In this document: positions 397 to 63,077 of the stretch, in pieces | Layout of the letters: each line of letters starts with the position of its first letter | Numbering within the stretch: position 1 is the stretch's first letter | NCBI GenBank assembly: GCA_905235575.1 | Contig: CAJOLZ010000008.1 | Span: forward strand, 1-64,000 | Direction: 5' to 3' | DNA from: an uncultured Bacteroidaceae bacterium | GTDB lineage: Bacteria > Bacteroidota > Bacteroidia > Bacteroidales > Bacteroidaceae | DNA: 64,000 nt | The notes under the pieces: model-generated | Database searches by the model: none | Told to the model about the DNA's origin: nothing | The model's input: only the letters and a program-made list of their open reading frames with translations | Translations under genes and position numbers: made by a program

Positions 397-475
397 ATTC
401 TTGTTTTTGTTTCCGTTAGCCGATGGAACATCTTCCCACTTATTCGTCCTCTCAAGGAGAAAAGCATCGATAAAT

Positions 476-506
476 TTTGCTTTTCGCTCGTTTTTCCGTA
501 CCTTTG
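476..506 (+). promoter_or_regulatory. Promoter of the amidase-MCE operon
   Basis: TTTG at 476-479, a 19-bp spacer and TACCTTTG at 499-506 match the Bacteroidota sigma-70 consensus. The ATG at 526 lies 19 nt beyond the -7 box, which gives a very short leader. Confidence 0.75.
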
Positions 507-525
507 CGGCATAAAACGAGCAGGG

Positions 526-9255: not shown

Positions 9256-9308
9256 CGTTTTGGGCCCCTTGGAGGTCGTGCGGCTGAGCACTGCGTTTCT
9301 TCGAATGA

Positions 9309-9366
9309 GGCACCACGCTGCATCGCCTGTCGCACCACGCTGCGTTGCCCGTCGCACCACGGTGCG
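9309..9366 (+). repeat. 22-bp palindrome array R2 (array only)
   Basis: Three units of the 14-bp near-palindrome at 9309, 9331 and 9353, exactly 22 bp apart, the last being CGCACCACGGTGCG. A degenerate fourth unit (GAGCACTGCG around 9286) may precede them. The rest of the composite element is not found at the expected distance on either side. The array lies between the convergent oadB and thiD genes. Confidence 0.8.
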
Positions 9367-9385
9367 TTCAGCGTATCTCTGTGAA

Positions 9386-14727: not shown

Positions 14728-14745
14728 TGTTTGATTGATAAAAAA

Positions 14746-14825
14746 CGCACCACGGTGCGACGCGTGTCGCAGCGTGGTGCGTTGCCTGTCGCAACGTGGT
14801 GCGTCGGACGTAGAACCACGGTGCG
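14746..14825 (+). repeat. 22-bp palindrome array R3 (four units)
   Basis: Units start at 14746, 14768, 14790 and 14812, period exactly 22. The central dinucleotides run AC, GT, GT, AC, so units 1-2 and 3-4 are complementary to each other and could form two long hairpins. It lies in the 136-bp gap between two convergent genes. No rest of the composite element is seen. Confidence 0.85.
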
Positions 14826-14863
14826 TCATACATACGTTCCCCGGAGGAGCGTTTTTCGTTATG

Positions 14864-20004: not shown

Positions 20005-20138
20005 CTCATTTTTTGCCGAATCTCCAAGCAACGGTCAGCATTTCAGACCTTATATGCGTCCGAAAACGGTGTTTTCCTGTGCGATTTATCTTTACACCTA
20101 ACTGAACGCGTTTTTCATCCGAACTCAAAAACTGCCGT

Positions 20139-20397
20139 CGCACCGCGCTCTTCACGATGTCGCACCACGGTGCGTTTGCCCTCTCAACGTGGTCTTCATG
20201 CTCCGTGGCTGCGATATCTCGCCGCAAAGACGGTCGCGCTCAGAAAAACGCGATTTTCAGAAGCGTTGATAATGAGGTGGTTACTTCGGACGTTTTCTCC
20301 GAAAGGGCACAAAAAACGCCTGAAAAGGGCATTTTTCGACCCTTTTCAGGCGCACTCTCAGAATGGGTGGAAGATGAAAATCTTCCGATTTTGTTAC
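20139..20397 (+). repeat. Composite intergenic repeat, copy R4 (259 bp)
   Basis: Three units at 20139, 20161 and 20183 (22-bp period; only the middle one is a perfect CGCACCACGGTGCG). The conserved box GTTGATAATGAGGTGGTTA starts at 20265, 69 nt after the last unit. The far end AATCTTCCGATTTTGTTAC is at 20379-20397 and includes the gdhA stop codon (20394-20396). The interval from box to end is 10 nt shorter than in R1, R7 and R8, and that middle part is occupied by the gdhA terminator hairpin. It fills the 419-bp gap between gdhA and the PPDK-like gene. Confidence 0.75.
20311..20352 (-). terminator. gdhA terminator
   Basis: Perfect 13-bp stem CGCCTGAAAAGGG / CCCTTTTCAGGCG with a 10-nt loop. 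On the minus strand it is followed by six T (20316-20311). A smaller hairpin, GGAAGAT-GAAA-ATCTTCC at 20369-20386, lies between it and the gdhA stop. Confidence 0.88.
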
Positions 20398-21731
20398 AGT
20401 ACTCCCTGAGCCATCATAGCTTTGGCAACCTTCATGAAGCCGGCAACATTGGCGCCCTTCACGTAGTTGACATAGCCGTCGGCCTCGGTACCATACTTCA
20501 CGCAGTTCTGGTGGATGTTCTCCATGATGGCGTGCAGACGTGCGTCCACTTCTTCGCTTGTCCAGCTCAGACGCTCGCTGTTCTGCGACATCTCCAGACC
20601 GCTCACGCTCACGCCGCCGGCGTTGGCAGCCTTACCGGGAGCATACAGTATCTTAGCCTCCTGGAATACGCGGATTGCACCGGGAGTTGAAGGCATGTTG
20701 GCGCCCTCGCTCACGGCAAACACACCGTTGGCAACGAGTGCCTTGGCAGCCTCCTCGTTAATTTCGTTCTGTGTAGCCGAAGGCAGTGCGATGTCGGCCT
20801 TCTCGAACCAGGGCTTTGCACCTGCTACGTACTTGGCTGTGGGGTACTTCTCAACATACTCCTTGATACGTCCGCGATAGACGTTCTTCAGTTCCATTAC
20901 ATAGTCCAGCTTCTCGCGGTCGATGCCGTCGGGATCGTATACGTAGCCGTCCGAGTCGCTCATGGTGAGCACCTTGCCGCCCAACTGGAGCACCTTCTCA
21001 GCTGTATACTGCGCCACGTTACCGGCACCACTGATGAGCACGCTCTTGCCCTTCAGGTCGATACCCTTGGTCTTCAGCATCTCGCAGAGGAAGTATACGT
21101 TACCGTAACCGGTAGCCTCGGGACGAATCAGCGAACCACCGAACTCCAGACCCTTGCCCGTGAGCACGCCGCTGAACTCGTGGGTCAGCTTCTTGTACAT
21201 GCCGAACATGTAGCCCACTTCGCGACCGCCTACGCCGATATCACCGGCAGGTACGTCAACGTCGGGACCGATGTGGCGTGTCAGCTCCAGCATGAAAGCC
21301 TGGCAGAAACGCATCACCTCAGCATTAGACTTGCCGCGCGGAGAGAAGTCGGAACCACCCTTTGCACCACCCATGGGCAGTGTCGTCAGGCTGTTCTTGA
21401 ACGTCTGCTCGAAAGCCAGGAACTTCAGGATGCCCAGGTTCACGCTCTTGTGGAAACGGATACCACCCTTGTACGGGCCAATCACGTTGTTGTGCTGCAC
21501 ACGGTAGCCCATGTTCGTCTGGATGTTGCCCTTGTCGTCCATCCAGTTCACGCGGAACTGATAGATGCGATCGGGAATACACAGGCGCTCAATCAGGTTC
21601 ACCTTGTCAAACTCGGGGTGCTTGTTGTACTCTTCTTCGATAGTGCCCAGCACCTCTTCCACGGCCTGATGGTATTCAGGCTCATTGGGGAATCTTTGTT
21701 TCAGATTCGCCAAAACTTCTTTTGCATTCAT
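20394..21731 (-). CDS. gdhA: NADP-specific glutamate dehydrogenase
   Basis: It makes L-glutamate from 2-oxoglutarate and ammonium, the main route of ammonium assimilation in many Bacteroidales. The 445 residues match the hexameric small-subunit class I enzyme. YKGGIRFH (87-94) precedes the catalytic Lys124 in PMGGAKGGSDF, followed by VPAGDIGVGGREVGYMFGMYK. The Rossmann domain has SGAGNVAQYTAEK, then SDSDGYVYDPDG where the Ser after the second strand favours NADP, and GANMPSTPGAI. It stands alone, with its own promoter and terminator. Confidence 0.97.
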   Translation of the reverse strand: MNAKEVLANLKQRFPNEPEYHQAVEEVLGTIEEEYNKHPEFDKVNLIERLCIPDRIYQFRVNWMDDKGNIQTNMGYRVQHNNVIGPYKGGIRFHKSVNLGILKFLAFEQTFKNSLTTLPMGGAKGGSDFSPRGKSNAEVMRFCQAFMLELTRHIGPDVDVPAGDIGVGGREVGYMFGMYKKLTHEFSGVLTGKGLEFGGSLIRPEATGYGNVYFLCEMLKTKGIDLKGKSVLISGAGNVAQYTAEKVLQLGGKVLTMSDSDGYVYDPDGIDREKLDYVMELKNVYRGRIKEYVEKYPTAKYVAGAKPWFEKADIALPSATQNEINEEAAKALVANGVFAVSEGANMPSTPGAIRVFQEAKILYAPGKAANAGGVSVSGLEMSQNSERLSWTSEEVDARLHAIMENIHQNCVKYGTEADGYVNYVKGANVAGFMKVAKAMMAQGVL

Positions 21732-25943: not shown

Positions 25944-26057
25944 CGAAATAATGGGCGAATACGGCGCCTTCTGACGAATTTTCTTGTGCATCGGCCTGCG
26001 CGAAATCTACTAATCGCAAATCATGCTCGAAACAGGGTGGTGAAGAGTGGTTGAAAA

Positions 26058-26137
26058 CGCACCGTGGTGCGACGGCCGTCGCACCACGGTGCGCAGCCTG
26101 TCGCAGCACGGTGCGACAGACGTCGCACTGCGGTGCA
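26058..26137 (+). repeat. 22-bp palindrome array R5 (four units)
   Basis: Units at 26058, 26080, 26102 and 26124. The first two with their spacer form an almost perfect 38-bp palindrome centred on GGCC. The array sits in the 418-bp gap between the DUF6057 gene and the tRNA cluster, which are divergent. Boxes of the composite element are not present at the expected spacing. The rest of this gap shows only the two promoters. Confidence 0.85.
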
Positions 26138-26247
26138 TATCGGCACGCCGCTTTCTTGGACTTCGCGGATTATAATGTCGCAACAGCACGAAAACACGGG
26201 TCGAAAAGCGACTTCAGAAGATTTTTTGAAAAAAAAATGCCAAATGT

Positions 26248-43769: not shown

Positions 43770-44408
43770 ACGCTTAAATTAGTGTTATTGTTATTGAATT
43801 GTTTTTAGTTTCTTTAAGGTTTTTCACACTTTTGTGCCACTTACCAAAGCAAATTTATGTTTTTTTTATAATACAGCGCGACACTGGGCACCTATTTTGC
43901 TTATGTGTTAACGTTATTTAACACTTTTCGCCCTTTTTGACCCTTTTCGCGGCTGTCTTGGGCGGTTTTTTGTTCAAAAAAGTGCCGTTGAACCGTCGAT
44001 TCGGGCTCAACTCTCATGTTCTTTCTCATTTTTTTGTCCCCAGATGGGTGTTTTAACCCGAATCGGACATTAGGTCGACAAAGGTGCTTTTCCTCTTGCA
44101 TGAGAAGTCTTTTTATGCCATAACGATATCTCTTTCTGCATCTTATTGCCAGCGTCTCCTCACCGTAGCCCGCTACGCCATCGAAGACGCTACCAACAAC
44201 CTGTTCGAAACATCTTTCACTCTGACTTAAATCCTACTTCCCGATTAGGGTTAAACCTGAATTATTCGTCTGCTCGAGTTTGCCGTGTTTCAAAATTTCG
44301 ATACCCTGAAATGAGCGAAATTTATGATGTGAAAACCATGCTTGTGTTATGCGAATATTATTTACATAATTCTTTGCGTTTTTTCGTTCTCTGTTTTCCG
44401 ACGAAAAA
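43770..44408. other. Long gap upstream of the FAS1-Sus locus
   Basis: The whole gap to the helicase gene is 901 bp; its last 266 bp are repeat copy R6. In the remainder I see a possible minus-strand -7 box TAAATTTG (43857-43850, no -33 match) about 80 nt before the FAS1 start, and an inverted repeat GTGTTAA/TTAACAC at 43905-43924 that could be an operator. About 44060-44230 has no gene that I can support. No anti-sigma, sigma or hybrid sensor gene, the usual Sus regulators, lies next to the locus. Confidence 0.4.
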
Positions 44409-44674
44409 CGCACCGTGCTGCGACGGCTGTCGCACCACGGTGCGTCTCTGTCCCCAATGTGCTATACCTGCACGAGAATCGTCTAAATGGCGTCAGCCTT
44501 TTCTGCAGCGGAAAATTTCGCAGAAAAATGGTGCGCTGAAAATCAATCGGTTGAATTTTCGTTGGAACTGAAATCGCACAAAAAAGCCCCAAAATGTGCC
44601 CGAAATCGGTCCATTTGGGGTGCACCTCACTTTGAGGGAATTCTTCTCTGCGGTAAAAAATGATTATATTTTAG
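44409..44674 (+). repeat. Composite intergenic repeat, copy R6 (about 266 bp)
   Basis: Units at 44409, 44431 and (degenerate) 44453. The first two are complementary and can form a 17-bp stem with a 4-nt loop. The box GCTGAAAATCAATCGGTT starts at 44535, again 69 nt after the third unit. A diverged far end (around 44658-44674) reaches the helicase stop codon (44671-44673). The TTCTCAC part is not recognisable in this copy. Confidence 0.7.
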
Positions 44675-46683
44675 CTTCGCTTTCCTTTCTTCTTCAGTTC
44701 CTCTGCAAGCTGCCAATACATGGCCGCTGTTTCCTCGTCTCCGAGACGTGCGTGTGCGTCGCCCAGCAACTGATAGGCGCGCGGATGTTGTGGTTTCAGA
44801 CTGGTGGCCCGTTGGAGGTCGTTGATGGCTTCGCTCCACAGGTTGAGTTCCATGAATGCGCGGCCGCGGTTGAAGATGGCCTTGAACGACGACGGCGCCA
44901 GACGGACGGCTTCGTTCAGGTCGTGCATGGCCTCGTGGTGCTGGTTCATGTGCATCAGCGTGTCGGCGCGTCTCACCAGTGCATCGATGCTCGTCGGGTG
45001 GAGTCGCAGGGCCTTCGTATAGTTGGCCACGGCAGCCTTGTCGTTGTGTGCTTGCGTGACGCATTCGTCACCCAGTGCCACAAATTCGCGTGCCAGCGCC
45101 TGCAGTTCTTTATTCTGAGCCTCCATGCGTCGCCGCATCTCGTCGCGTTCTCCGCGCAGGCGGTTCACGATGTTCAGCTTTCGCTGCAGGAGGCGTCGCG
45201 CAGCGGGTTTCTCTATGTCGTAGCGGGCATGTATGGCCACGAAGAAGTGGTCGAGGCATTCCTTCATGTCACCCTTGTCGAAGGCCTGTGCTGCGGCCGC
45301 ATATTCGGTGTCGGCCTTGGCCGTCTGCAGGGCGCGCTGGAGGTCGTTCCCGTCGTTGAAATGACGTGCGAACTCCACCACCTCGGGCCGCACGAAAATG
45401 TCGGAGCGCTGTAGCGGTCGGCACAGTGTGAGCCCCTCGAGCGAGGTGCAGCGGCTCAGTGCCACGTAGGCCTGTCCGCCGGCGAACGTACCGCCCGAGA
45501 AGTCGATGGTGACGCGTGGGAATGTCAGTCCCTGGCTCTTGTGGATGGTGATGGCCCATGCCAGACGGATGGGGAACTGTGTGAAGGTTCCCAGCTCTTT
45601 CTCTACGATTCGCTTCTCGCGCTCGTTGTACTCATAGCGCATGTTGCTCCATCGCTCCGGCTCGACGATGACCTCCCGTCCGTCGTCGGTGCGTATGCCG
45701 AGTGTTCCGCTCTTCGTGTCAATGTGCGTCAGAATGCCCAACGTTCCGTTCACCCAGCGCTTTTCGGGGTCGTTCTTGATGAAGATAATCTGTGCGCCCT
45801 CCTTCACCTCGAGCTGTAGCAGCGTGGGGAGTGACGTCTCGGGAAACTCGCCCTCGACTCGGCCTTGCAGCATGATGGCCTTGCCCGGCAGACGTTCGAG
45901 TTCTTCCTGGTTCACGTGGTCTACGTTATCGCGGCGCGTGGCCAGCAGGATGTTAAGCTCGTCGTTCGTGCGCCGTTTCGGGCTCTCTTCGTGACGCGTA
46001 TTGAGCAATTGCAGTTCGATTTCAGAGACCTGGTTGGCACGTATGTGGTCGAGCGCGGCAATGAAGCCGGCATCTTTCTGTCGGAAGACTTTTTTCAACT
46101 CGATGCTCACGAGCCTCATTTCGCGGAAGACGCGGGCCGAGAAGAAATAGGGATTGGGGTAGAAACGGCTCAGAATCTCCCATTCGTCACTCTTCACCAC
46201 AGGTTCGAGCTGGAAGACATCGCCGATAAGCATCACCTGTTTGCCGCCGAAGGGCTCGCGCATGTTGCGGCAGAAAACGCGCAGCACGCGGTCGATGAAG
46301 TCGATGATGTCGGCCCTCACCATCGAAATTTCGTCGATGATGATGAGTTCGACCTCGTTGAGCAGTTTGATATGGTTCTTGCGGTATTTCAGAAAATCGC
46401 GCAGCCGCGACGGTGCGAAGCGTGGGTCGTCGGGCAGCAACGGGTGGAAGGGCAGTTTGAAAAAGCTGTGGAGCGTGCTTCCTCCGGCGTTGATGGCGGC
46501 GATTCCAGTGGGTGCCAGCACCACGCTTTTCTTCCATTTCTGCTCGACGACGTAGCGCAGGAATGTGCTCTTGCCTGTGCCCGCCTTTCCGGTGAGGAAG
46601 AGCGAGTGATGAGTGAAGCGTATCAGCGAGACTGCGTTGCGCAGTTCGGGTGTGGAAGTGTCGAGTGTCTTCTCCATGCTCAT
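44671..46683 (-). CDS. Pif1-like helicase with C-terminal TPR domain
   Basis: A 670-residue SF1B helicase. Motif I is GKAGTGKST (about 32-40), Ia [31 protein letters not shown] (about 113-121), [17 protein letters not shown]-like KKVFRQKD, and [13 protein letters not shown] with AYVALSRC. Pif1 enzymes unwind G-quadruplexes, R-loops and stalled forks 5' to 3'. Residues about 545-670 add three TPR repeats ([39 protein letters not shown]), a protein-binding part not present in yeast or RecD2-type relatives. Its start overlaps the miaA stop (ATGA), and it closes the long minus-strand housekeeping run. Confidence 0.9.
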
Positions 46684-56307: not shown

Positions 56308-56375
56308 TAAGATGTTATGACCTTTTCGTGACAAATCTCTTTGCGTATTTCTGATAAAAGCTGATTTTGGGCTGT

Positions 56376-56644
56376 CACGACGTGTTCCGACGCATGACGC
56401 ACTGCGGTGTGAAGGCTGTCGCACCACGGTGCGTTTTTGCAAACAATAAGTTTTCTGGCCTGTTTTTCGGCGACGGAAGAAATTTCGCAGAAAATCGGAT
56501 TGCTGAGAATCAGACGGTTAGTTTTTCGGCGTTTTCAGTTCCTCACATCGTCGCAGCTCCTCGCATCTATTCTCACAATTCCTCACGCCGCTTTTCGATG
56601 CCCCATCTTGCTCACCATTTCTGATAAATCGCCGAAATACTTAC
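56376..56644 (+). repeat. Composite intergenic repeat, copy R7 (269 bp)
   Basis: Units at 56376 (degenerate), 56398 and 56420. The box GCTGAGAATCAGACGGTTA starts at 56502, 69 nt after the last unit. ATTCTCAC is at 56569 and GATGCCCC near 56597. The far end (56626-56644) is degenerate but ends CTTAC exactly 124 nt after the box start. It occupies the gap between the LuxR-type and PAP2 genes. Confidence 0.8.
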
Positions 56645-56694
56645 AAATGGGGGCTATCCGCGGCTGCGCTCTTTTGAGAAAATCGAGCCAATTT

Positions 56695-61518: not shown

Positions 61519-62676
61519 ATGAGACACAAACTTTCTATTACTATGCTGGCCCTCTGGTTGGCATGCTCCGGCGCAATGGCTCAGGAGGCCATCTTCGAGC
61601 GCCGTGACCAGGGTTCACCCCGTTTCAATGCCGATGGCACCGTCACCCTCAGCCTGCGTGCTCCCGAAGCACAGAAGGTCTATGTCGTAGGCGATTGTGT
61701 GGAAGGGCAGCGTGCCGAGATGAAGAAGGATGGCGACCGATGGTCGTACACCACGGGTCAGCTCGCGCCCGAACTTTACAACTATCGCTTCGTGGTGGAC
61801 GGAGTGGAAGCTCTCGACCCCTCGAATATCGAACGAAGCCGTGACGTACGTTCGTTCATGAGCACCTTCATCGTCACCAAGGAGGTGGGCGACCAGGGCT
61901 ATCTTTACGGCAACCACGACGTGGCCCACGGAAACATGGCCCAAGTGTGGTACGACTCGCCCCAGCTGGGCATTCAGCGCCGCATGAGCATCTATACGCC
62001 TGCCGGCTACGACAAGGGCAAGAATTATCCCGTACTCTACCTGCTGCATGGCGCAGGTGGCGACGAGGAGGCATGGCCTACGCTGGGACGTGTGCAGCAA
62101 ATCATGGACAACCTGATTGCGCTCGGAAAAGCCGAGCCCATGATTGTGGTGATGCCCAACGGAAATGCCAGCGACGACGCTTCGCCCCTTCTCTCGGGAC
62201 TCGCCCGCAAGGACCGCCCCAAGACCTCCTACGAGAAGAGTTTCGACGATATCATGAAATACGTCGAGAACCACTACAAAGTAAAGAAAGATGCCGCCAG
62301 CACCGCTGTCTGTGGCCTGAGTATGGGCGGCTACCACACCTTCATGATCTCCAACCTGCGCCCGGGTCGCTTCAACTATATCGGCCTCTTCTCGGCAGCC
62401 ATACGGATGGGTAACGACAACCGTGCATCATTGCGCGAGCAGTTGGCCAACGACCCCGAAGCCAACAAAATGATATCCAGTGTGTTCGCTGCAAAGCCCT
62501 CGCTCTATTGGATTGCCATCGGACGCGAGGACTTCCTGAAAGACCAGAACGATACCTATCGTGCCTACCTCGACCAGAAGGGGTACAAATACGAGTATTT
62601 CGAGAGTGCAGGCGGCCACATCTGGCGCAACTGGCGCATCTATCTCTCGATGTTTGCACCACGTCTGTTTAAGTAA
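61519..62676 (+). CDS. Secreted two-domain carbohydrate esterase (E-set + CE1-like)
   Basis: A 385-residue exported esterase. Signal peptide 1-21; a CBM48/E-set-like domain (about 30-115: FNADGTVTLSLRAPEAQKVYVVGD, YNYRFVVDGV); and an esterase D/CE1 catalytic domain with YPVLYLLHGAGGDEEAWP (about 173), nucleophile Ser in AVCGLSMGGYHTF (about 264), acid in IAIGREDFL and His in SAGGHIWRNWR near the end. This layout is that of Bacteroidales feruloyl/acetyl-xylan esterases. Its stop codon coincides with the end of repeat R8. Confidence 0.9.
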   Translation: MRHKLSITMLALWLACSGAMAQEAIFERRDQGSPRFNADGTVTLSLRAPEAQKVYVVGDCVEGQRAEMKKDGDRWSYTTGQLAPELYNYRFVVDGVEALDPSNIERSRDVRSFMSTFIVTKEVGDQGYLYGNHDVAHGNMAQVWYDSPQLGIQRRMSIYTPAGYDKGKNYPVLYLLHGAGGDEEAWPTLGRVQQIMDNLIALGKAEPMIVVMPNGNASDDASPLLSGLARKDRPKTSYEKSFDDIMKYVENHYKVKKDAASTAVCGLSMGGYHTFMISNLRPGRFNYIGLFSAAIRMGNDNRASLREQLANDPEANKMISSVFAAKPSLYWIAIGREDFLKDQNDTYRAYLDQKGYKYEYFESAGGHIWRNWRIYLSMFAPRLFK

Positions 62677-62941
62677 GAAAATCGGAAGATTCCACTTCGT
62701 TTCTATCTGCGAGGGGCATCGAAAATCGCTGTGAGAAGCAGTGAGAATCGGTGCCCCTCGTTGCGTTGTGTTGGGTGCTGGGAAATGACGGGAATATAAC
62801 CGTCTGATTATCAACGTTGCGAATTTCTGCGTAGAAGAATGTTTCCTCGTCTTTTTCCTGCAGAAACACGCTTTTCACAAAAACGCAGCGTGCTGCGACA
62901 GCCGTCGCACCACGGTGCGTCATCTGACGAAGCACACTGCG
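62673..62941 (-). repeat. Composite intergenic repeat, copy R8 (269 bp, inverted)
   Basis: This copy is in the opposite orientation. Units lie at 62884, 62906 and 62928. The box, read on the minus strand as GTTGATAATCAGACGGTTA, spans 62815-62797, 69 nt from the nearest unit. TTCTCAC repeats follow (62748-62729) and the far end AATCTTCCGATTTTCTTAC is at 62691-62673. That end overlaps the esterase stop codon (62674-62676). The segment 62711-62760 can fold with GAGGGGCA pairing to TGCCCCTC. Confidence 0.82.
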
Positions 62942-63077
62942 ATGCCCGGAATTCAGTTTTCCTCGAAACTGTGGAGAGATAAATGTAAGGAATAATTTCG
63001 TGTTTGAACGTGCGTTTTCGCTACTTTGAATACCGTCCGGAAGTGCTCGGGAATGGAGAAGGAAAAACAAAATATAT

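What the first reader, a model, noticed from the sequence alone, without database searches (positions are those of the whole stretch)
62673..62941. Dispersed ~269-bp composite element with fixed internal geometry (copies R1, R4, R6, R7, R8)
Five intergenic regions (128-396, 20139-20397, 44409-44674, 56376-56644, 62673-62941) share the same order: three 22-bp palindromic units, then a box close to GCTGATAATCAGACGGTTA, then (in three copies) TTCTCAC repeats, then AATCTTCCGATTTTCTTAC. The distance from the last unit to the box is 69 nt in all five. The box-to-end distance is 124 nt in R1, R7 and R8, and total length is exactly 269 bp in these. The sequence between boxes has diverged a lot. Retained spacing with diverged sequence suggests selection on structure, or an old non-autonomous mobile element. 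I know no named family of this form.
Basis: seen in the sequence. Interest (0 to 1): 0.88.

Follow-up and report, generated by a model that had tools for sequence, protein, structure and literature searches.

The report
Dispersed DNA element with swappable array
An uncultured bacterium carries many non-coding DNA elements whose landmarks stay at fixed distances while the sequence drifts, and two related species show the same frame with a different palindromic sequence in the same slots, as if the sites followed a fast-changing DNA-binding protein.

Summary
R8 is one of about 80 copies (estimate) of a ~326-bp intergenic element (R8: 62672-62997, minus strand). Landmark distances hold (TTACA to 3' end 317 nt in 41 of 46 measurable copies) although median pairwise identity is 58.5%. 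Its palindromic units form a 22-bp-pitch lattice shared with ~270 stand-alone 4x22-bp arrays (estimate). RNA covariation is absent. No target-site duplication and no Y1/REP transposase in this genome. Between paralogues, conserved columns change about half as often as others, with no gaps. 138 congeners lack this two-unit array, yet 17 of 30 sampled congeners show 22-bp-pitch repeats, mostly of unrelated sequence. Congeners G065 (3 copies) and G153 (4) carry the same composite frame; CRYG dyad cores lie at the G000 positions in 19 of 21 slots against 14 of 609 other positions, with different arms. Best reading: a once-mobile double-stranded DNA scaffold for a helically phased nucleoprotein complex whose recognition arms turn over between species. 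Binding protein, mobilising enzyme and function are not identified.

The parts
62672..62997 (-). R8, full composite element (326 bp), TTCTCAC subtype
   Evidence: nhmmer 271 bits, model 2-322; edges from 45 aligned copies
62984..62988 (-). conserved TTACA of the 5' end of R8
62861..62942 (-). 22-bp-pitch lattice of R8: good units 62905-62920 and 62883-62898, degenerate units 62927-62942 and 62861-62876
62797..62815 (-). dyad box GTTGATAATCAGACGGTTA
   Evidence: 1 mismatch to the consensus
62731..62747 (-). two TTCTCAC motifs, part of a row of CA dinucleotides at exact 10-bp steps (element columns 225, 235, 245, 255, 265)
62672..62691 (-). 3' end AATCTTCCGATTTTCTTACT; its complement holds the TAA stop (62674-62676) of the esterase gene
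61576..62676 (+). putative esterase gene (PF00756) that abuts R8; relatives end RLF, RLFK or RLFKD, so it is not truncated
56320..56645 (+). R7 composite, TTCTCAC subtype
   Evidence: 249.6 bits
72..397 (+). R1 composite, TTCTCAC subtype; first ~22 nt not recognisable
   Evidence: 217.4 bits, model 23-323
20083..20398 (+). R4 composite, hairpin subtype (TTACA to end 307 nt, as in two G153 copies)
   Evidence: (50.2 bits)
44353..44678 (+). R6 composite, hairpin subtype, 3' end not recognisable (end coordinate inferred from length)
   Evidence: 87.8 bits, model 3-215
9286..9367 (+). stand-alone 4x22-bp array between OAD-beta and a phosphomethylpyrimidine-kinase gene (convergent)
14745..14826 (.). 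stand-alone 4x22-bp array between convergent genes
26057..26138 (.). stand-alone 4x22-bp array next to a tRNA cluster

Best explanation
A family of fixed-geometry DNA elements that were spread by copying and now act in place as double-stranded DNA scaffolds for a helically phased nucleoprotein complex. A dimeric sequence-specific protein (not identified) would bind the dyads of the 22-bp lattice, on one face of the helix every two turns. Other proteins would sit at the box and at the CA motifs spaced exactly 10 bp, so that an insertion or deletion would rotate parts out of phase and be removed by selection. The stand-alone 4x22 arrays would be sites of the same protein. Between species the palindrome arms change while the CRYG core, the pitch and the frame stay, as expected if the protein's specificity drifts and its sites follow. 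Most likely role, from placement without a clear gene-orientation rule and likeness to BIMEs: chromosome organisation or insulation between genes. SHOWN: geometry, absence of RNA covariation, intergenic placement, same frame and slots in two congeners, constraint between paralogues. INFERRED: the protein, its drift, the role, the copying mechanism.
For: Landmark distances constant in 41-45 of 46-49 measurable copies; 45 of 51 copies without net length change over the aligned span, median identity 58.5% (copies matching under 250 model positions, i.e. 5 of the 31 in the sample, were left out). Three paralogue pairs: 129 substitutions, 0 gap columns; 43 of 453 high-information columns changed against 86 of 486 low ones, p=3e-4 (first 30 columns of one pair left out; single-pair p 0.01, 0.05, 0.11). 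Pitch: 131 of 135 unit steps are 22 nt, 3 are 44, 1 is 21; runs of four CRYG cores occur 33 times at lag 22, once at lag 23, never at the other lags 15-30 in 395 kb of G000. CA columns at 225/235/245/255/265. No pairing covariation; units 2 and 3 point the same way in 38 of 46 classifiable arrays. Congeners: G065 (3) and G153 (4) copies, TTACA to end 307, 317 or 319 nt; CRYG at 54/76/98 in 19 of 21 slots against 14 of 609, p=2e-25 (16 of 21 before one anchor was corrected; slots and copies are not independent). Congener arrays: 36 in 759 kb of 26 genomes, 34 intergenic where 17.8% of sequence is; dyad score 7-8 of 8 in 13 of 36 against 3.5% for shuffled units.
Against: No protein or binding data. 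In the two pairs with a shared right flank that flank also aligns without gaps for about 100 bp, so a low indel rate could explain part of the length conservation. High-information columns still change at about half the rate of others. Information autocorrelation at lag 10 in the right arm is only 0.18. The frame was recognised in only G065 and G153 (7 copies; G053 unclear) of 138 congeners, by a strict 3'-end pattern whose single hits in 7 genomes are at background (reversed control 12 hits in 11 genomes, at most 2 each). Several of the seven were recognised partly by eye (profile E-values 3e-7 to 3e-3 in a tiny set), and the box patterns for them were written after seeing them. The sequence model, with filters scoring 22 candidates a genome, found only G000 and a G162 fragment that does not look like a composite. 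Composite arms match stand-alone arms clearly in G000 only; loosely in G065; G053 unclear; 46 kb of G153 held no stand-alone array. G034's graded conservation is unexplained.
Confidence: 0.5

Rival explanations
1. A plain non-autonomous mobile element family (MITE or REP-like) with no function in place; geometry is kept only because the mobilising enzyme needs it.
For: Sharp edges with unrelated flanks; pair L058 86% identical with 23-28% identical flanks on both sides; array position not shared in congeners (1 of 29 OAD-beta loci has an array, of another unit); young family in G034 with 57 perfect 22-mers; some array-bearing congeners (G013, G026, G031, G034, G142, G177) do have Y1_Tnp matches.
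Against: No target-site duplication in 49 arrays, 26 composites, 27 G034 cores; no Y1_Tnp match in G000 nor in array-bearing G011, G012, G016, G053; nearest neighbours mostly 62-69% identical, so copies have diverged long in place with few indels.
Confidence: 0.25
2. Arrays (and perhaps composites) are bidirectional transcription terminators or mRNA-stabilising hairpins.
For: Arrays end AAAA..TTTT, fold better than shuffles (mean z -3.8 over 30 arrays), are over-represented between convergent genes (17 arrays for 25 regions >=100 bp against 24 for 76 co-directional, p=0.002) and lie nearer the upstream stop in 20 of 24 co-directional cases.
Against: No compensatory change. A classic terminator precedes the array in 14 of 54 array-bearing 3' ends, for example OAD-beta, against 13 of 33 convergent and 19 of 91 co-directional ends without array; 26 of 54 arrays score as terminator themselves. 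Phasing over 88 bp is not needed for a terminator.
Confidence: 0.12
3. A movable upstream regulatory module: the composite is copied together with the promoter on its right.
For: Two of the three closest pairs share the right flank (92% and 80% over 60 bp) including a TAnnTTTG-like motif (promoter consensus recalled), but not the left flank.
Against: The right edge is sharp over 45 copies; the downstream gene points towards the element in 14 of 31 copies, where there is no promoter to serve.
Confidence: 0.08
4. Neutral relics in a lineage with a very low indel rate.
For: Gap-free shared flanks of two pairs.
Against: Conserved columns spared between paralogues (p=3e-4); same slots kept in two congeners.
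Confidence: 0.05

Closest known systems
REP / REPIN-RAYT elements (abstracts PMC2817692, PMC3116915 seen in listings; details recalled)
   Same: High-copy short intergenic palindromes, sequence varying between species, enriched at gene 3' ends
   Different: No Y1_Tnp/RAYT match in this genome; hairpin pairing not kept; strict 22-bp lattice of about four units; larger composite frame
BIME (bacterial interspersed mosaic elements; start of abstract PMC2817692 seen in listing, gyrase/IHF binding recalled)
   Same: Regularly spaced palindromic units combined with other motifs; protein docking
   Different: Unit 22 bp; nearly fixed count; frame conserved between species while the unit sequence changes
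BrickBuilt minisatellite-MITE of Porphyromonas gingivalis (PMC4596501, passages read)
   Same: Bacteroidales, intergenic, tandem short units flanked by conserved leader and tail
   Different: BrickBuilt: 23-nt direct repeats of varying number, IS5-like terminal inverted repeats. Here: 22-bp dyads, nearly fixed number and length, no terminal inverted repeats on the composite
GTAG/CGTC-tagged palindromes (PMC3733652, passages read)
   Same: Dispersed palindromic repeats; the CGTC class is reported from five phyla incl. Bacteroidetes and lacks a dedicated transposase
   Different: Stem does not begin with AT; congener units share no constant tag

Membership tests
REPIN-RAYT | Y1 (RAYT) transposase gene in the genome | tested here: not met
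   PF01797: 0 in G000 (genome 87.6% complete). Genus: 62 of 139 any match, 53 over cut-off, many marginal; array-bearing G011, G012, G016, G053 none, but G013, G026, G031, G034, G142, G177 do
REPIN-RAYT | short palindromes at high copy in intergenic DNA | tested here: met
REPIN-RAYT | hairpin pairing conserved by compensatory change | tested here: not met
CGTC-tagged REP | CGTC tag next to a stem that starts with AT | tested here: not met
   Unit often reads (C)GTCGCACC, stem starts GCAC; congener units have other sequences
BIME | regularly spaced palindromic units | tested here: met
BIME | binds gyrase or IHF (recalled) | not testable with these tools
   needs binding assays
MITE (incl. BrickBuilt) | terminal inverted repeats | tested here: not met
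   Composite ends read TTACA.. and ..ACA in the same sense (by inspection). Stand-alone arrays do have AAAACGCACC..GGTGCGTTTT ends
MITE (incl. BrickBuilt) | target-site duplication | tested here: not met
   3528 boundary/length tests per set, best p 0.004-0.012; old duplications may have decayed
BrickBuilt | 23-nt direct repeats of varying number | tested here: not met
   22 bp; 39 of 53 arrays 4 units, 10 five, 4 three, counting degenerate ones
Structured RNA (Rfam) | match to a family or covariation | tested here: not met
Intrinsic terminator | hairpin followed by T-run at 3' ends | tested here: inconclusive

The most novel reading that the evidence does not exclude
A genus-wide system in which an unidentified DNA-binding protein occupies 22-bp lattices at hundreds of intergenic loci and its recognition sequence turns over rapidly and in concert across the loci of a species, while the composite frame (ends, box, slots, helical phase) is held fixed: a bacterial parallel to the fast turnover of centromere or PRDM9 recognition sequences (parallel recalled).
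Probability: 0.35. Interest if true: 0.9.

Novelty: new variant of a known kind. Interest (0 to 1): 0.76.

Why it matters
Dispersed palindromic repeats are usually explained as hairpins moved by a dedicated transposase. Here the helical geometry, not the hairpin, is what is kept, and the recognition sequence is exchanged between species inside an unchanged frame. That would make concerted turnover of hundreds of sites testable in a bacterium, and offers a new handle on chromosome organisation in uncultured Bacteroidales.

Tried and rejected
Structured RNA: RNAalifold, named-helix counts with shuffles, Rfam at two thresholds: rejected. Protein-coding: stops in most copies in every frame (frame +3 is open in 13 of 51 copies, +1 in 5, +2 in 2, -1 in 1, -2 and -3 in none): rejected. 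RAYT mobilisation: no gene in G000. Target-site duplication: none. Arrays at orthologous places in congeners: 1 of 29 at the OAD-beta locus, but the neighbouring gene is not kept there in any of the 29, so only suggestive. Array-as-terminator: unclear. Named-genome scan with an exact composite pattern: 0. Viral scan: one phage-like contig with TACGCACC palindromes, taken as unrelated. In other families 2 of 3 lag-22 hits were N runs. Some congener lag-22 hits look like plain direct repeats (for example L085:1228, L242:6329) and were not removed from the counts. Two length statements that I first took were partly fixed by how I had cut the sequences; they are replaced by the free landmark search.

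Full report
WHAT IS THERE. The window is C8:1-64000 of an unnamed 2.49-Mb, 65-contig, 87.6%-complete genome; some relatives of a window protein are called 'Bacteroidaceae bacterium' MAGs. The five copies exist. A profile from 17 of 21 aligned copies scores them at 50-271 bits and finds 26 others in a 459-kb sample (window plus 20 stretches chosen around earlier hits, so biased upwards). With 20 further short stretches chosen by the 3'-end pattern and five search loci, 51 copies matching at least 250 of 323 model positions were compared; shorter matches, including R4 and R6, were left out there.

SIZE AND EDGES. 45 aligned copies show a sharply bounded element of about 326 bp; information falls to background within a few bases at both ends. 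It begins aaat-AATCnTTACA-nTTTTC and ends AATCTTCCGATTTCnnnACA. Searched freely for landmarks, TTACA to box is 174 nt in 45 of 48 copies, box to 3' end 143 in 44 of 49 (133 in two), TTACA to 3' end 317 in 41 of 46 (307 in two, 318 in two, 303 in one). 45 of 51 have no net length change over the aligned span, while median identity is 58.5% and nearest neighbours are mostly 62-69% identical (30 distinct copies). Copy number: 46 3'-end matches in the genome, a pattern present on 18 of 31 sample composites, give about 80 (estimate). Stand-alone arrays: 53 in the sample with 103 of the 519 two-unit matches, giving about 267.

ANATOMY. From 5' to 3': end motif; lattice of dyads at 22-bp pitch (degenerate, good, good, degenerate); 69 nt; box cTGAnAATCAa/g.cG.TTA; then either a row of CA motifs at exact 10-bp steps that includes the TTCTCAC repeats (columns 225-265) or, in R4, R6 and L039, an A/T-rich hairpin; then the 3' end. 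Stand-alone arrays are sharply bounded at four units with A-run and T-run ends (49 arrays). 131 of 135 unit steps are 22 nt. Half-sites GTCGCACC alternate about every 11 bp (by inspection). Units are asymmetric: middle units point the same way in 38 of 46 classifiable arrays, and the two arms do not co-vary (self-pairing reached or exceeded by all 1000 shuffles for each of the four units).

NOT RNA. RNAalifold gives 9 pairs, one with a double change, and no covariation gain. The two best-looking helices do worse than shuffled partners. Rfam has nothing at gathering thresholds for this element, and two chance-level hits at E 2-3. Single arrays and composites do fold better than shuffles (mean z -3.8 and -2.3), which palindromes alone would give.

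CONTEXT. None of the 31 composites or 53 multi-unit arrays of the sample lies inside a called gene (7 single-unit hits inside genes were treated as chance). Arrays are over-represented between convergent genes (17 for 25 regions of at least 100 bp, against 24 for 76 co-directional; p=0.002) and sit nearer the upstream stop in 20 of 24 co-directional cases. Composites have no clear orientation rule: the left end faces a gene start in 22 of 30, the right end in 17 of 31. The 3' end of R8 holds the TAA stop of an esterase gene that is not truncated.

MOBILITY AND CONSTRAINT. The L058 pair is 86% identical with unrelated flanks on both sides, which is what element-only copying predicts. Two other close pairs share the right flank with a promoter-like TAnnTTTG (motif recalled) but not the left flank. 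No target-site duplication was found and no Y1 transposase in this genome; in the genus 62 of 139 genomes have some Y1 match, including six of the array-bearing ones and not four others. In the three pairs 129 substitutions and no gap were counted, and conserved columns changed about half as often (odds ratio 0.49, p=3e-4). Against this, the shared flanks are gap-free too, so indels may be rare in this lineage.

CONGENERS. The two-unit pattern occurs 519 times in G000, in none of 138 congeners, reversed control 0. Single units (<=1 mismatch) occur 1-3 times in 15 of 119 related genomes and not in the rest. Sequence-blind 22-bp self-similarity does occur: 4 of 6, 10 of 20 and 3 of 5 sampled congeners (G031 is in two sets; 17 of 30 distinct). 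Lag 22 leads the first two sets (23 peaks in 400 kb, next 6; 13 in 359 kb, next 10 at lag 21) but not the third (4, against 5 at lag 21); 20 other-family genomes give 1 real hit. Runs of four CRYG cores at lag 22: 10 in 1.2 Mb of congeners (0-3 at other lags), none in 276 kb of other families. The units are mostly unrelated in sequence, intergenic (34 of 36) and dyad-symmetric; G031 and G067 each have one array close to the G000 unit. G034 has a young family with 57 perfect 22-mers.

THE DECISIVE COMPARISON. The composite profile hits congener G065. A 3'-end pattern over 139 genomes gives 40 sites in G000, 4 in G153, 3 in G065 and single sites in seven others; the reversed control gives 12 sites in 11 genomes, at most 2 each. 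The four G153 and three G065 sites carry the same 5' end, a box-like motif 133-134 nt from the end (as in R4; patterns written after inspection) and the hairpin-type right arm. TTACA to end is 307 (two), 317 (two) or 319 (three), against 307 in R4 and 317 in the common G000 type, so the classes differ by about one helical turn. Of the single sites G053 has an array but no clear box; the other six show no composite on inspection. At 54, 76 and 98 nt after TTACA, the phase of the G000 lattice, 19 of 21 slots carry CRYG against 14 of 609 other positions (p=2e-25; positions and copies are not independent). The arms differ: G000 CGCAC..GTGCG, G065 GATGGAA or similar, G153 GGAACAA or similar.

INTERPRETATION. 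Geometry conserved to the base, sequence free to drift, arms exchanged between species and shared between composites and stand-alone arrays in G000: the simplest account is a sequence-specific protein whose sites follow its specificity, assembled with other factors on a rigid DNA frame. Dispersal by copying is likely but its enzyme is unknown. Function in chromosome organisation or insulation is inference from placement and from likeness to BIMEs.

LITERATURE. Read in passages: PMC3733652 (tagged REPs), PMC4596501 (BrickBuilt), PMC5771137. Seen in listings only: PMC2817692, PMC3116915, PMC6006769 and others. The listings showed no description of such elements; they are capped and cover open-licence papers only.

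Noticed in passing
L140-L169 (G034): Around a 22-mer chosen as perfect match (so 2.0 bits by selection), adjacent 22-bp modules of 27 copies are conserved in a symmetric, outward-falling gradient (about 1.6, 0.77, 0.4, 0.28, 0.17 bits; background 0.1), as in layered satellite growth or nucleation and spreading.
   Followed up: partly
L077:6297-6420: A MAG labelled Bacteroides sp. has a three-unit 22-bp array with CGCAACRYGTTGCG units upstream of a dnaK-like gene.
   Followed up: no
L079:5600-5750: A phage-like viral contig with a ParA-like ORF carries TACGCACCACGGTGCGTA-type palindromes at 22-bp pitch, possibly a partition site.
   Followed up: no
L096:16640-16720 and L112:1977-2104: Congeners G067 and G031 each have an array close in sequence to the G000 unit although their genomes otherwise lack it.
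   Followed up: partly
L069:12503-12600 / L050:14045-14140; L063:17704-17820 / window 398-510: Two composite pairs share about 100 bp of downstream promoter-like sequence and, in the first pair, a coding start, but not the left flank.
   Followed up: partly
L085:9290-9520 (G065): Long tract of 9-bp repeats GAGTACTCC/GAGTAATCA.
   Followed up: no
congener stretches L100-L119: Self-similarity at lags 21, 28 and 35 is also raised, which suggests heptamer repeats in this genus.
   Followed up: no
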